Shown: in pieces, positions 7,478 through 12,771 of the stretch
Layout: every line of letters begins with the position of its first letter
Numbering within the stretch: the first letter of the stretch is position 1
Assembly: GCA_023212695.1 (NCBI GenBank)
Contig: JALCCG010000434.1
Coordinates: 1 to 12,771 of the forward strand
Direction of reading: 5' to 3'
DNA from: Sporisorium sorghi
Taxonomy: Eukaryota > Basidiomycota > Ustilaginomycetes > Ustilaginales > Ustilaginaceae
DNA length: 12,771 nt
The notes under the pieces: model-generated
What the model was told of the DNA's origin: nothing
Database searches by the model: none
What the model saw: only the letters and a program-made list of their open reading frames with translations
Made by a program: the position numbers and the translations under genes

Positions 7478-8773
7478 TCAGAGCCTCCACCGCTCGCCCA
7501 CCTCCCCACCGTCCTCCAGCTTCCCCTCTTCCCCCTTAACCTTGGACACACCCATCCCCAACCCCTTCCGATCCACCTCCATAAAATTCGCCCTCAACCT
7601 ACCCACACTCACGTACCCGTTCAAGATCGCCCACACATCAGTGCCCTCCTCCAGCACCCTCGGTCCCAGCAACGACGCCATGTTGGGCGCAAAGTGCAGC
7701 ACGTTGCTCGGCTCGGGCGCGCCTACAGGCTGCGGTGCGGGCGGTGCGGCGTACGTCGCTGTCGTTTCAGCCGCGAACAGTGGGCCGTACCTGTTCTCCC
7801 AGATGCGCGTCCACACGACCTCTGGCTGGGAGATCGTTTCGCACAGAGGGACGTTGATAGTGTAGCACCCTACTTGGGGTTCCTGATCCCAGTTCGCGTA
7901 GAGCCGGTGGATGAGCGAGGCGGTGAACCTGTTCGCTGCAGCTGCAGTAGCCCGCAGTTGCGTGGGGTCGAGACCAGGCCCACGCGCGTTGGACCGTTCC
8001 GCGAGCGTTGGCGGGTTCGCCGTAAAATGACCGAAACTCACCGCGATGCTCCTTACGCCCGCCAGAGCGCCCGCCATCGCCGCGCCCAGTGTCCCCGACG
8101 ACAGCGCAAACGCCGTCCCCGTATTCCTGCCAAAGTTCGGACCGGACACGACCAGGTCGAACGGCGTCTGCGTCCCAGCGCGCGCGCTTCGCTCTGACTC
8201 CGAACCCCAGAACGCGTTGCCGTTGAACAGGCCCGCATTGCACGCCGTAGTGGGCGAGCCGTCCAGCAGCACCCACTCGGCAAACTCCCCGCGTGCAGTG
8301 TCGATCGCACGGCGCGTAGCTGACCATGACCCGGATGTGCCCGCGTGGCCCCCGTCGAAGTTGGACCGGATGGGGTAGTAGTACCAGTACGCGACGGGGC
8401 CTTGCAGGGAGAACTGCATCGAGCCCCAGGATTTTTGCGAGGAGGGAAGCACGACGCTCACGTCCCACCCGAGCGCGACGAGCTCTTGGTACAGCCCAAG
8501 CACGTGCGGTGAGGACGGTGAGGGCGGGCCGTCGTCGTTGACTAGCAGCACTTTGGGTGGTCGGTTGGCGGTGGCTGTGGTGGTGGAGAACATGTGGGGC
8601 GAGAAGGTTGAGGTTATGGTGGATCGAGAGGAGGTGGTGTCGGACAACTCGTGGTGGATGTATATGCCAGGAGAGTGGTGATGACGCTGTTGGTGGTCGC
8701 GGTATAGAAGCGCCGAGACGAGGAGGACGAGCAGAGGTGTGAAGAGTGTGTGCAGTGAGGGAGGGCGCAGCAT
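7478..8773 (-). CDS. SurE-type phosphatase/5'-nucleotidase with N-terminal membrane anchor
   Basis: A 431-residue intronless protein starting MLRPPSLHTLF. Residues about 9-24 form one hydrophobic segment, a signal anchor or uncleaved signal peptide. A Ser/Thr/His-rich linker follows to about residue 70. The SurE fold begins with KVLLVNDDG: Asp80 and Asp81 match the metal-binding pair of the family. Ser115 (SSQKSWGS) matches the conserved Ser, and SGPNFGRNTG at 210-219 holds the conserved Asn213. The family hydrolyses phosphate monoesters, often nucleoside monophosphates, with a divalent metal. The anchor suggests an acid phosphatase working in the secretory pathway, vacuole or cell surface, unlike the cytosolic bacterial SurE. 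The stretch of about 50 residues from 153 to 205 is longer than in bacterial SurE. Downstream it converges on the 101-residue gene, with 78 bp between stops. Start choice: ATG 8773; a later Met61 would give a protein without the anchor. Confidence 0.85.
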   Translation of the reverse strand: MLRPPSLHTLFTPLLVLLVSALLYRDHQQRHHHSPGIYIHHELSDTTSSRSTITSTFSPHMFSTTTATANRPPKVLLVNDDGPPSPSSPHVLGLYQELVALGWDVSVVLPSSQKSWGSMQFSLQGPVAYWYYYPIRSNFDGGHAGTSGSWSATRRAIDTARGEFAEWVLLDGSPTTACNAGLFNGNAFWGSESERSARAGTQTPFDLVVSGPNFGRNTGTAFALSSGTLGAAMAGALAGVRSIAVSFGHFTANPPTLAERSNARGPGLDPTQLRATAAAANRFTASLIHRLYANWDQEPQVGCYTINVPLCETISQPEVVWTRIWENRYGPLFAAETTATYAAPPAPQPVGAPEPSNVLHFAPNMASLLGPRVLEEGTDVWAILNGYVSVGRLRANFMEVDRKGLGMGVSKVKGEEGKLEDGGEVGERWRL

Positions 8774-9217
8774 TCAAGACGGGCAAAGGTGAGTCAGAGG
8801 AGAGAGATGGTGGTGGTGGCAAAGAGCCGAGGCGTTTGGAGCGATTCGCGATCTGTGCGCGATTCGGTCGGTGTTTCGAGATCGCATCACCGATCGATCA
8901 ATTTAATTATTTTTTTTTGAGCTGAAATGTGAGATCGTCGCCCGCAACAAAAGTGGAGGATGGGAAAAATCAACGCAGCGTCGACATGATCGCCTCTTTG
9001 TCACAACCACCACCATCATCGTCGTTTGCTACACTCCACCATTCGCGCGAACCCGCCACTCGCTCTAGACTGGCACACTGCAGCAAGGCGACCACTCTCA
9101 GCCGACGCAATACACCTCCTTCTTCTTGTCACGGCTCGACACATCACCATCCCTTCCACGAACGAGTCCCACGAACTGCAGCCTCTGTCTCGAGGCCTGC
9201 CCCTTCCCTCGCCCATC
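8774..9217. promoter_or_regulatory. Divergent region between the SurE-type gene and the ATPase C-terminal fragment
   Basis: 444 bp lie between divergent starts. An AT-rich patch with a T9 run (about 8899-8918) stands out in otherwise GC-rich sequence and may be the core of a bidirectional promoter. The last 150 bp before ATG 9218 are CT-rich like a fungal 5' leader. Under the inversion model this is the old promoter of the SurE-type gene, now also upstream of the ATPase fragment. I see no other gene. Confidence 0.5.
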
Positions 9218-9856
9218 ATGGCCACCACCACCACCACCGTCACCCGCCCCACCCACGGCCACACGCCGATCCATCCACGCGCGCCCACCGCCAACCTCGT
9301 CTCCGTCAAAGTCCTCGTCTCGCTCATCGGTCAAGTCCTCATCTGCGGCGGCTTCCAGCTCTGGGCCTTCACCCACGTCCGCGCACAACCCTGGTACACC
9401 CCACCCATCATCGACCCAGATGCAGAGCTCGACTCGTCCAACCCCGAGAACTCCGCCGTGTTCCTCGTCTCCTCGTTTCAGTACACCATCGGCTGCCTGG
9501 TGTACACGACGGGCTATCCGTACCGCAAGAATCCGATCACGAACGTGTGGTTGATGGCGAGTGTCGTGGTGTTGTTGGCCTTCTCGCTGTATGCGCTGTT
9601 TGCGGAAGATGGGGTGGTGGTAGGCGTGTTGGGGCTGGTGCATTTCCCAAGGTCTTTTAGGGTGACGTTGTTCGTGGCGGTGGTGGTGAATACCGTGCTG
9701 AGCTTTGTGTTTGAGAGCGTGTTGGCGAGGTACGTCGTGCAAGGGGTCAAGGCGGTTCAGAGGCTGTCGAGGCGCTCGAGGCGCAACAGGCGCAAACATG
9801 CGAGTAAGACGTACAAGGCTGTTGAAAGGAGTATGCAGCACGACGGTGATGCCTGA
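9218..9856 (+). pseudogene. YPK9: C-terminal fragment (TM7-TM10) of a P5B ATPase, on the opposite strand from its body
   Basis: The frame encodes 212 residues from ATG 9218, which has an excellent context (A at -3, G at +4). Residues 1-16 (MATTTTTVTRPTHGHT) look unrelated to ATPases. From about Pro17-Ile18 the sequence is typical of the end of P5B pumps: HPRAPTANLVSVKVLVSLIG leads into TM7, then a PWYTPP loop. TM8 is around FLVSSFQYTIGCLVYTTG, TM9 around NVWLMASVVVLLAFSLYALF, and TM10 around VTLFVAVVVNTVLSFVFESV. A basic Arg/Lys-rich cytosolic tail ends the protein. These are exactly the segments missing from the neighbouring minus-strand ATPase. The fragment lacks any catalytic domain, so it cannot pump alone. 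It has no stop or frameshift, so the break is recent, or the piece is still expressed. Upstream of 9218 the frame is open but contains no ATG. Confidence 0.85.
9264..9268 (+). repeat. Left copy of a 5-bp inverted repeat at the inversion breakpoint
   Basis: CGCCG here matches CGGCG at 9995-9999. It spans the end of the Thr codon and the Pro17 codon just before ATPase-like sequence starts in the plus-strand fragment. Confidence 0.6.
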
Positions 9857-9994
9857 AGAAAACCGCTTTCCAGTCACACACCTGTGCTTGTACTCGCTTT
9901 CCCTCTCACTGCTGCACATCGCACTCTCCAGAACCCTCCGTGTGATCATCGCTGCCATCATCCTTGAACATTGGCATTGAGGGTGAACCTTCTA
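9269..9994. other. Putative inverted 726-bp segment
   Basis: The segment is bounded by CGCCG (9264-9268) and CGGCG (9995-9999). It holds TM7-TM10, the tail and the former 3' region of the P5B ATPase gene. Turning it round joins the codon for the last Pro of the minus-strand ORF to Ile18 of the plus-strand fragment in the same frame, giving RTGPP followed by IHPRAPTANLVS. That order is expected between TM6 and TM7 of P5B ATPases. It could be a genomic inversion or an assembly error. Confidence 0.75.
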
Positions 9995-9999
9995 CGGCG
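9995..9999 (-). repeat. Right copy of a 5-bp inverted repeat at the inversion breakpoint
   Basis: CGGCG on the plus strand reads CGCCG on the minus strand. It covers the last two proline codons of the truncated ATPase, directly before its stop codon. Confidence 0.6.
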
Positions 10000-12696
10000 G
10001 ACCAGTACGCGCCGAAAACACACTCAACAGCAACGCCGAAAAGTCGGCCAGCATAAACTGTCCGTCCGACAACGAGCTGCCGATCGAGTACATCAGCAAC
10101 ACCGAGCTGAACTGGATCAGCGACGTCAGACAGATATAACTGAAACAGTTGAACGACGTCACCAGCGCCGCTCTTCCCTCTGCGATCGCATCGAGCACGC
10201 ACGAGATATCGCCCCTGTTTGACGTAAACGGCGCGGCGACCGACGCCTCGGCCTCGCTGAGCGAGATCCCAATGTCGGCCGCCTTGAGCGCGCCGCAGTC
10301 GTTGGCGCCGTCGCCGCAGAACCCGACGCAGTAGTTCAAAGCCTGCAATCTCTCAACCAGCTCGTGCTTCTCGTCCGGCGACATGCGCGCAAAGATCGTG
10401 CCCTTGATCAGCATCCGCCGCACCGTCTCGATCGGCGCGAAATCGATCATCCAACGGAACACGTCGCCCGTCAATGCGAGCTGGTAGTCCTGGAAGTCGA
10501 ACTCTTCCAGATCCAACACGTGCGGGTCCACCTCCCTCGGCTGCAGGTTGTACGCATCCAGCTTGATCCGATCGTCGTCGACGCTCGACCAGTCCACCAC
10601 CGCCCGCGCGCTCCGCTGGTCGCCCTCCACAAACGTCGGCATAAACACGTGCGCCGACTGCCCCACCATGCCGCACTCCCTCGCCACGCTGATCGCCGTA
10701 CGCGGATTGTCGCCCGTCACCATCTTGGCGACGATGTTGGCGTTGCGCAGCACCTCGATCGCCGGCGCACTGCCTTCCTTGAGCTTGTTCTCGAAGATGA
10801 TTAACCCCAAGAAGCGCAGTCCGCTCTCGGCCTGCTCGCGTCGCATGCGTTGAGCCTTGATCCAGCTCATGCCCGCCATCGACTTGCCTGCGCATGCGAT
10901 GACGCGGTAGCCGTGTTTGGTGTAATACGACAGCAGATCGTCGTAGTCCGCAGGGAAGGTGTCCTTGTCGCAGATGTCCGACATGACTTCGGGCGCGCCT
11001 TTGACAAACACCTCCATCGACTGCGACTTGAGCCGTTTGACGATCACCGACATGCGACGCAGCGAAGAGACAAACTCAAACGTGCGCAGCACGCCCAGCT
11101 CGAGAAAGTGCGCGTGTCGACCGGACTTGATCGCATCTTCCACCTCGAAAGCCTGCCCACCGGGAGGACGGACTACGGTCTGCACCAGCGCAGGCGGACG
11201 CTCCGTCAGCTTCGACTTGCCGTTCTTGGCCGTGCCCGTTTTCGTTGTCGCCTTGGCCGATCGATCTTTGCCCTCGTCGAGCGTCCAGCCGGTATACTCG
11301 AACATCTTGACATCGAGCGGATCGCCAATCACCTCGCCATCCACCACTTTCAGCGAGTGGCACGTCGCCAACGCATACAGCAACGGCATCTTGCGCGCAT
11401 CCGCGTCATTCTTGCCCCCAACACCCACAGGCATCTCGTCGACCGTCTCGTGCAGCTCGCTGAACCGCCCGGCCTTGAGATCGATGGTGCGCGTCCCCAG
11501 CACGTCCAGCCCCTCGGCGGTGAGTGTGCCCGTCTTGTCAAAGCAAAACACGTCCACTTTGCCTCCGATGATGACGCGGTTGGGCGATATACAGAAAATG
11601 CCCACCTTGCGCAGACGGTTGATGGCGAACGAGATGCCGATCGACATGGTGGCGGGCAGCGCGGGGGGCACCACCACCGTGATCAGATCAAGCGCACGGA
11701 CGACGATGGTGTGCCACGCAATGCCGATCTTGACAAAGTTGACGGCGGCAAACGTGAAGCCGATGCCTGCGATCATGGCGAGGAAGCCAATGAAGCGGAA
11801 CGAGTCGCGGTAAAACTTGAAGCCCATGGGCTTGGGGAAGAGCATGCTGCGCACCAGAGCACCTTTGGTCGTGTTGAAGCCAGTTCGGACCACCATGGCC
11901 TTGGCGCCGACCTCGTTCTTGTCCGTCGATCCGCTCCCACGGATACGAATGATGCGCGTGCCAGAGAAAAGGAAGTGCTTCGCGAGATCAGCAGTGACTT
12001 CAGTCCCTGCTGCATGAAGCCCAACCATGCTAGGCGTAGTCAGCGGCACCTTGCTGACGGGCACACTCTCTCCCGTCAACATGCTCTCGTTAACAATCGC
12101 ATCGCCGCTGAGCAAGACGCTGTCTGCAGGAAACAGCAGCAACCCTGGCTCGGCCACATCGTAGACATCGCCAGGCACCAAGTCGTTCGAATCGAGTACC
12201 TGCCAGTTGCCCTCGCGCAGCACGCGCACGTCGCACGAGAAGCGACTCATCTCGCGCATGCGGTTGACCGTCTGGCGCGTCTCGACGAGCGTGGTGAAGA
12301 TCGAGACGAGCGAGATGACGGCAATGCAAAACGCATAGTAGTAGTAGTTGTCGAACGACCACAGGATGATCGAGACGATCTGGAACATGTAGAACGGGTG
12401 GAGCACTTCGTCGACCAGAAGCTGCCACGTGGATTTGGCCTGGATCTCGATGGCGTTCTTGCCAAAGATGGTGGTGCGGTCCTTCTCTGCGTCCCAGCTG
12501 ATGCCGCTGTTGATGGCGCCGAGCGAGGTCCAGAGCGGGTCTCGCCAGTCCTTGATCATGCGAAGACGGCCTGTGGGAGGGTGCAAAGCGTAGCGGGTGT
12601 AGCGGTAGTCGAAAAAGGTGAGGTCCATGAGCTGCTCTGTCTGGACGCCCGAAAGCATGGGTAGGCCGCCAGTCGCTGATACTTCGCCACCATTGC

Positions 12697-12721
12697 CAGC
12701 GCCAGCGCCAGTGCCAGTGCC
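12697..12721. repeat. Hexamer repeat GCCAGC/GCCAGT encoding Gly-Ala and Gly-Thr
   Basis: Tandem hexamers in the N-terminal linker of the ATPase encode alternating Gly-Ala and Gly-Thr on the minus strand. They are in frame with the downstream catalytic part, which supports translation upstream of Met 12658. Confidence 0.7.
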
Positions 12722-12771
12722 ATTTGCCTCGCCGCCGTTGCCGCCATTGACAATACTGCTCCTTGCCGAAG

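What the first reader, a model, noticed from the sequence alone, without database searches (positions are those of the whole stretch)
9218..12771. P5B ATPase gene split by a 726-bp inversion at a 5-bp inverted repeat
The minus-strand ATPase stops right after TM6 at CCG-CCG-TAG. The missing TM7-TM10 lie immediately beyond on the plus strand. The two edges share CGCCG in inverted orientation, and flipping 9269-9994 restores the frame with no base added or lost, giving RTGPP then IHPRAPTANLVS. Neither piece has internal stops or frameshifts, so the event looks recent.
Basis: partly seen in the sequence, partly recalled or inferred. Interest (0 to 1): 0.9.

Follow-up and report, generated by a model that had tools for sequence, protein, structure and literature searches.

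The report
Smut polyamine pump in two genes
A membrane pump that is one protein in most fungi is made by two separate genes in true smut fungi, and the split looks old and conserved rather than a recent break, so the pump probably works as two chains.

Summary
The split is real. The minus-strand P5B (ATP13A2/Ypk9-type) ATPase ORF ends after TM6 (stop at 9992-9994), and TM7-TM10 form their own plus-strand ORF (9218-9856). The pieces tile one family profile, positions 133-904 and 921-1054 of 1055.

It is not recent. The 19 closest database relatives (85-98% identical) end at the same place, SARTGP(P/Y/A), without TM7-TM10. Of 27 hits to the C-half, 26 are stand-alone proteins, including Ustilago maydis UMAG_05267. 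Eight N/C pairs share a contig length; two have consecutive locus tags. Each half forms one clade. Violaceomyces (partial record), Tilletia and Malassezia relatives are unsplit. The break therefore predates the Ustilaginales/Urocystidales divergence.

The C-half keeps 42 of 48 near-invariant residues. The N-half keeps catalytic motifs and eight of nine polyamine-site residues (Y940 is T).

Best explanation: ancient gene fission at the core/support-domain boundary, now a two-chain pump. Physical assembly is inferred, not shown.

"Recent", exact frame restoration (two residues short) and the 5-bp repeat as proof (3.8% by chance) do not hold. An inversion origin remains plausible.

The parts
9992..12769 (-). 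N-half: P5B ATPase from before TM1 through TM6, with A, P and N domains; 925 aa in the window, 5' end cut by the contig end
   Evidence: ORF; TIGR01657 E 9.2e-281, profile 133-904 of 1055; PDB CtYpk9 and human ATP13A2
9218..9856 (+). C-half: separate 212-aa protein with TM7-TM10 (support domain) and the C-terminal tail
9218..9268 (+). New N-terminal leader of the C-half (MATTTTTVTRPTHGHTP) before the old coding sequence IHPRAPTANLVS
   Evidence: Alignment of the window and 20 of the 26 C-halves: variable leader, then (H/Y)(T/S/A)(P/A)IHP(R/K)APTA(N/D)LVS
9857..9991 (.). 135-bp stretch between the two stop codons of the convergent pair
9264..9268 (+). CGCCG, left edge of the proposed inversion
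9995..9999 (-). CGCCG on the minus strand (CGGCG on +), right edge of the proposed inversion
8774..9217 (.). Upstream region of the C-half, shared head-to-head with the SurE-domain gene 7478-8773 (-); presumed promoters of both
   Evidence: promoter role inferred from position only

Best explanation
In the common ancestor of Ustilaginales and Urocystidales, a P5B (ATP13A2/Ypk9-type) ATPase gene was cut in the TM6-TM7 loop and its 3' part was turned round, probably by an inversion. Both pieces acquired what they needed (a stop codon after TGPP; a new start codon and leader before IHP) and have since been kept as two genes. The N-half is the six-helix catalytic core (A, P, N and M domains). The C-half is the four-helix support domain. 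Most likely the two proteins are made separately, the C-half enters the membrane by TM7 with its short leader in the cytosol, and they assemble into one pump that still handles polyamines or a related cation in an endolysosomal or vacuolar membrane. Shown: the split, its conservation, its single-clade distribution, and retained constraint on both halves. Inferred: assembly, topology, location, substrate, and inversion as the original event.
For: The two pieces tile one profile (TIGR01657 133-904 and 921-1054). The 19 closest N-halves end at the same point, and 26 of 27 hits to the C-half are stand-alone proteins. N and C representatives share a longest-contig length in 8 pairs, with consecutive tags PHSY_005570/005571 and NDA16_002430/002431. 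The split group forms one clade by either half (N 100/99; C 100/100), with the unsplit Violaceomyces protein as sister of the N clade at moderate support (89/83). Constraint: 42 of 48 near-invariant support-domain sites keep their residue, and site entropies correlate between split and intact proteins (Spearman 0.62, 185 sites); N-half mean pairwise column identity over residues 41-880 is 0.92. DKTGT, TGES, PPALP and polyamine-site residues W251, D254, Y256, Y259, D463, Q944, F963 and D967 are kept (site residues as named in passages of PMC10082790 and PMC12655044). The cut lies between the six helices common to P-type ATPases and the added support helices described in PMC10654040 (passages).
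Against: No expression, interaction or transport data. Y940 of the polyamine site is T. After the split, the TM5/TM6 segment and the C-half change faster than in intact relatives at matched N-half distance (C/N 2.1-6.9 against 1.8-2.8; TM5-6/N 1.8-5.4 against 0.0-0.3), which also fits relaxed constraint or changed function. Convergent adjacency is seen directly only in the window; elsewhere linkage rests on contig lengths and tags, and strand was not seen.
Confidence: 0.75

Rival explanations
1. The N-half works alone as a six-helix pump, and the C-half has taken another role (regulator, chaperone or unrelated membrane protein).
For: The catalytic core is complete; TM5/TM6 and TM8 carry clade-specific changes; the C-half evolves faster than its counterpart in intact relatives.
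Against: The C-half keeps 42 of 48 near-invariant support-domain sites, a correlated constraint pattern and the conserved KxYK...ER tail; the halves share a contig length in 8 pairs.
Confidence: 0.15
2. The two transcripts are joined by trans-splicing into one mRNA and one full-length pump.
For: The N-half ends and the C-half begins at almost the same residue; an in-frame peptide just upstream of the C-half ATG resembles one in P0137.
Against: A stop follows TGPP directly in the window; the 21 aligned C-halves (window and 20 of 26) have their own start and leader, though start codons are chosen by the annotators; the nearest AG before IHP in the window is about 75 bp upstream.
Confidence: 0.05
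3. A recent, strain-level inversion that broke the gene, or an assembly error.
For: Inverted 5-bp edges; open frames; contig end nearby.
Against: Stand-alone C-halves are named from 12 smut species, in two orders, and the N-halves stop at the same point.
Confidence: 0.02
4. A variant on origin, compatible with the best explanation: the fission arose not by a short inversion but by gene duplication with loss of complementary parts, or by a larger rearrangement later reduced to the present neighbourhood.
For: The halves carry tags 6 apart in P. flocculosa and 12 apart in T. frezii, which branch early in the split clade.
Against: The ends abut in the same loop with no shared coding sequence, which fits a cut better than two independent losses.
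Confidence: 0.35

Closest known systems
P5B ATPases (ATP13A2, yeast Ypk9, CtYpk9)
   Same: Sequence, catalytic motifs, PPALP motif, eight of nine polyamine-site residues; the C-half model matches TM7-TM10
   Different: Two genes and, presumably, two chains instead of one; TM6 one residue shorter without its proline; Y940 to T in TM5; changes in and next to TM8
P-type ATPases with accessory subunits (Na,K-ATPase beta/gamma, P4 with Cdc50, KdpFABC)
   Same: A pump made of more than one chain
   Different: There the extra chain is an added protein; here it is the pump's own support domain. The passages seen of the review PMC10654040 name no such case; the whole review was not read
Gene fission in fungi (Durrens et al. 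2008, PMC2557144)
   Same: A gene divided into separately kept parts; inversion named as a possible route (passages)
   Different: Here the fission cuts within the membrane domain of one enzyme, and in the window the parts face each other. The words ATPase and Ustilago do not occur in that paper's main text

Membership tests
P5B ATPase (ATP13A2/Ypk9) | Family profile TIGR01657 above cut-off | tested here: met
   N-half 933.9 bits against a cut-off of 618.25; the C-half covers 921-1054 at E 1.5e-20 but with 72.4 bits is below the whole-protein cut-off alone
P5B ATPase (ATP13A2/Ypk9) | Catalytic motifs DKTGT, TGES and GDGAND, and the PPALP motif in TM4 | tested here: met
   ORF translation; aligned
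P5B ATPase (ATP13A2/Ypk9) | Polyamine-site residues W251, D254, Y256, Y259, D463, Y940, Q944, F963, D967 | tested here: inconclusive
   Eight of nine kept; Y940 is T in the window
P5B ATPase (ATP13A2/Ypk9) | Ten core membrane helices in one polypeptide | tested here: not met
   TM7-TM10 on a separate opposite-strand ORF; separate proteins in the relatives too
P5B ATPase (ATP13A2/Ypk9) | P5-ATPase N-terminal domain PF12409 | tested here: inconclusive
   Not in the window's piece, which is cut by the contig end; listed among the precomputed domains of P0001-P0019
P5B ATPase (ATP13A2/Ypk9) | Polyamine-stimulated ATPase activity | not testable with these tools
   -
Functional gene fission (both products kept) | Both parts conserved without stops in many lineages | tested here: met
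   19 N-halves and 26 C-halves besides the window
Functional gene fission (both products kept) | Unsplit orthologues outside the clade | tested here: met
   99 of the 101 further listed hits P0020-P0120 also match the C-half, some only in part; the other 2 stop within TM6. Only the best 120 of 4,286 hits were listed
Functional gene fission (both products kept) | Products act together | not testable with these tools
   -

The most novel reading that the evidence does not exclude
A natural two-chain P-type ATPase whose support domain (TM7-TM10) is a separate, independently transcribed subunit, kept since before the Ustilaginales/Urocystidales split. Its transport site was remodelled around the break (TM5 FKYMALY to FSYICLT, TM6 shortened, changes in and next to TM8), so the C-half could act as a regulatory subunit that switches, localises or retunes a polyamine-type pump.
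Probability: 0.35. Interest if true: 0.85.

Novelty: new variant of a known kind. Interest (0 to 1): 0.72.

Why it matters
P-type ATPases are thought of as single-chain catalytic pumps in which further helices support a six-helix core. Here evolution has made a cut at that boundary and kept it for a very long time, which makes the role of the support domain directly testable: each half can be deleted, tagged or expressed alone. It also matters for annotation: the C-half of Ustilago maydis is an 'uncharacterized protein' in one source and a 'Cation-transporting P-type ATPase' in another, while the N-half is filed as a whole pump. P5B pumps are of medical interest through ATP13A2 (Parkinson-type disease).

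Tried and rejected
A recent inversion or assembly error: rejected because the same break recurs in the 19 closest N-halves. An intact copy of the same gene in the own genome: not found. The C-half hits itself, the paralogue on C257 (34%) and two weak places with E 0.03 and 0.07.

The 5-bp repeat as proof of mechanism: 3.8% of random point pairs have one, and only the window's DNA was available, so it could not be checked in relatives. Metagenome scans were capped at zero and not tried; the viral and genome contigs collections were not searched.

The alignment search for further stand-alone TM7-TM10 proteins (35 hits; only the 7,995 candidates sharing most words were scored) gave one more smut piece (P0149). 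The other new hits I read as fragments of intact genes: P0150-P0153 and P0155 carry sequence before TM7, P0154 starts inside TM7, and P0148 (Meira) is marked partial and starts at IHPKRP.

Literature: searches for UMAG_05267, split gene + P-type ATPase + Ustilago (25) and P5B + ATPase + gene fission (26) gave 0 papers. Six phrases such as 'split P-type ATPase' (59) gave 1, not on this. Searches (1 listed; 14; 12 of 81; 15 of 18) listed no title or abstract on it. This covers only the open library.

Rate comparison: 10 split species (45 pairs) and 36 intact proteins; pairs are not independent, and the closest distance bin has one intact pair. The small intact Exobasidiomycete set has a TM5-6/N ratio of 0.98 at larger distance, higher than other intact groups (0.27-0.52). 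Codon usage: the C-half frame scores 0.22, but one antisense frame scores 0.17, so this test is weak alone.

Full report
WHAT IS THERE. The window is the whole of contig C373 (12,771 bp) of a 23.17-Mb, 469-contig draft genome. Its proteins place it near Sporisorium: the N-half is 97 and 98% identical to two Sporisorium proteins, and the C-half pairs with S. reilianum P0121 in the tree (96/82). The species itself is not named. On the minus strand an ORF runs from the contig end to a TAG at 9992-9994 and ends SVFSARTGPP. On the plus strand a 212-aa ORF runs from ATG 9218 to TGA 9856. The genes converge, with 135 bp between their stop codons.

IT IS OLD AND SHARED. Of 4,286 hits to the N-half at E 1e-100 or better, the best 120 were listed. 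The first 19 (85-98% identical) stop at SARTGPP (17), SARTGPY (P0012) or SARTGPA (P0019) and have no TM7-TM10 match. They include Sporisorium, Ustilago, Pseudozyma hubeiensis, Kalmanozyma, Melanopsichium, Testicularia, P. flocculosa and Thecaphora frezii. Of the other 101, 99 also match the C-half, some only in part, and the remaining two (P0031, P0106) are cut inside TM6. Of 27 hits to the C-half, 26 are stand-alone proteins; the other, P0147, is a fragment of an intact gene. Three of the 26 begin at an internal methionine (P0141, P0142, P0146) and two have longer upstream frames (P0127, P0137). The named ones cover 12 species and include UMAG_05267 (listed as Mycosarcoma maydis), SPSC_05204, PHSY_005571, NDA16_002431 and UTRI_06282.

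LINKAGE. The longest contig of the N cluster and of the C cluster has the same length in eight pairs: P0002/P0122, P0005/P0141, P0008/P0129, P0010/P0130, P0015/P0136, P0016/P0149, P0017/P0145 and P0018/P0144. That they are the same contig is inferred. Other named clusters could not be matched this way: P0006 and P0019 have no contig listed, and P0001, P0011, P0013, P0121, P0123, P0124, P0126 and P0131 have no partner of equal length in the lists. Tags are consecutive in P. hubeiensis and U. loliicola, 6 apart in P. flocculosa and 12 apart in T. frezii. Strand in these genomes was not seen.

ONE ORIGIN. In the N-half tree (27 rows: 20 split, 7 chosen intact; sequence from late TM5 on left out) the split proteins form one clade (100/99), and the intact Violaceomyces protein is its sister at moderate support (89/83). 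In the C-half tree (34 rows: 23 split, 11 chosen intact, no Violaceomyces) the split rows form one clade (100/100). The Violaceomyces record P0020 is partial: it runs unbroken through TM6 into TM7 and ends at about residue 84 of the C-half. By NCBI taxonomy Thecaphora is Urocystidales, Testicularia Ustilaginales and Violaceomyces Violaceomycetales. A published chronogram puts the divergence of Violaceomycetales/Uleiellales from Urocystidales/Ustilaginales at about 209 (137-285) million years and most orders in the Triassic-Jurassic (PMC4738420, passages). So the cut happened after that node and before the two orders parted. The exact age was not computed here; 'over 100 million years' would be my inference.

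BOTH HALVES ARE UNDER CONSTRAINT. In 23 split C-halves (the window and 22 of the 26) against 36 chosen intact relatives, 42 of 48 sites that are at least 90% one residue in intact proteins keep the same majority residue. The six that differ are window C-half residues 21, 22, 92, 93, 96 and 100; three lie in the TM8 helix of the model (76-99) and one just after it. Site entropies correlate (Spearman 0.62, 185 sites). The N-half core, residues 41-880, has mean pairwise column identity 0.92 among 20 split proteins and 0.72 among 21 chosen intact ones. Results against simple conservation: at matched N-half distance the C-half differs more among split than among intact species (ratios 6.9, 4.1, 2.9 and 2.1 against 2.8, 2.5, 2.1 and 1.8), and the TM5-TM6 stretch 886-918 far more (4.0, 5.4, 2.6 and 1.8 against 0, 0.2, 0.3 and 0.2). 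The pairs overlap and one bin has a single intact pair.

TRANSPORT SITE. Mapped on human ATP13A2 (isoform 1 numbering from chain 8iek), the window keeps W251, D254, Y256, Y259, D463, Q944, F963 and D967, which PMC10082790 and PMC12655044 name around the polyamine site (passages), but has T for Y940 and S for K935. TM6 is one residue shorter and lacks the proline of the intact fungal relatives aligned. Violaceomyces already has the S but keeps the Y, so part of the change predates the cut. That TM5, TM6 and TM8 pack together in this superfamily is recalled knowledge.

HOW IT PROBABLY WORKS. P-type ATPases share A, P and N domains and six membrane helices; further helices form a support domain (PMC10654040, passages). 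The cut lies at that boundary. The TM6-TM7 loop is cytosolic (recalled), so neither half would need its topology changed. In the CtYpk9 structures a part that the authors discuss as the C-terminus interacts with the P-domain, though they found it hard to assign it a critical role (PMC8233418, passage). I infer that the C-half still docks on the N-half core. This is not shown.

THE INVERSION CLAIM. The edges do carry CGCCG in inverted order (9264-9268 and 9995-9999), but 3.8% of random point pairs do too. A flip would leave RTGPP-IHPRAP, two residues shorter than intact relatives such as RTLPYPDIHPKRP. After so long a time these details are unlikely to be the untouched scar. A reversal of the 3' part remains the simplest origin, but its size is open.

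PARALOGUE. The genome holds a second, intact P5B gene on C257 (48% identical over the core; 1,342-aa frame). It carries its own TM7-TM10 and could in principle mask loss of the split pump.

VERDICT. A real, conserved gene fission giving a probable two-chain P5B pump: a new variant of a known kind. I found no earlier report in the open library.

Noticed in passing
window 10028-10054 (-), TM6 of the N-half, and P0001-P0019: TM6 residues 906-914 occur in three alternative packings (MLADFSALLL-like; DFACLFL; LAVDFGVL(A/T)L). The second is in P0006, P0007 and P0014 and the third in P0010 and P0012, rows that the N-half tree places apart, partly on weak forks. Parallel change, gene conversion or old polymorphism is unexplained.
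   Followed up: partly
window 9161-9217 (+): In frame just upstream of the C-half ATG lies NESHELQPLSRGLPLPSPI, matched in P0137 (NEIELQPLSRGLPPPSPP), yet the window has no ATG in that open frame upstream. A spliced 5' exon, a longer protein or a conserved leader element is possible.
   Followed up: partly
G000 contig C257, 16821-20057 (-): A second, intact P5B ATPase gene, 48% identical to the N-half core.
   Followed up: partly
window 12771 (contig end): The first ~540 aa of the ATPase seem absent from this assembly: a 153-aa conserved piece gave no match. The contig breaks in a Gly/Asn-rich repeat.
   Followed up: partly
window, about 2-75: The left contig end is a (Gly-Leu)n coding repeat in one frame, probably where the assembly broke.
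   Followed up: no
window 7478-8773 (-): SurE-domain (5'/3'-nucleotidase-like) gene whose start faces the C-half; the two share one upstream region.
   Followed up: no
P0012 and P0150: Records named Cichorium endivia and Adiantum nelumboides carry smut-type or related fungal ATPase proteins, probably fungal contamination of plant assemblies.
   Followed up: no
P0017 and P0018: P. flocculosa, filed under Ustilaginaceae, groups with Thecaphora (Urocystidales) in the N-half tree (100/99), weakly so in the C-half tree (83/55).
   Followed up: no
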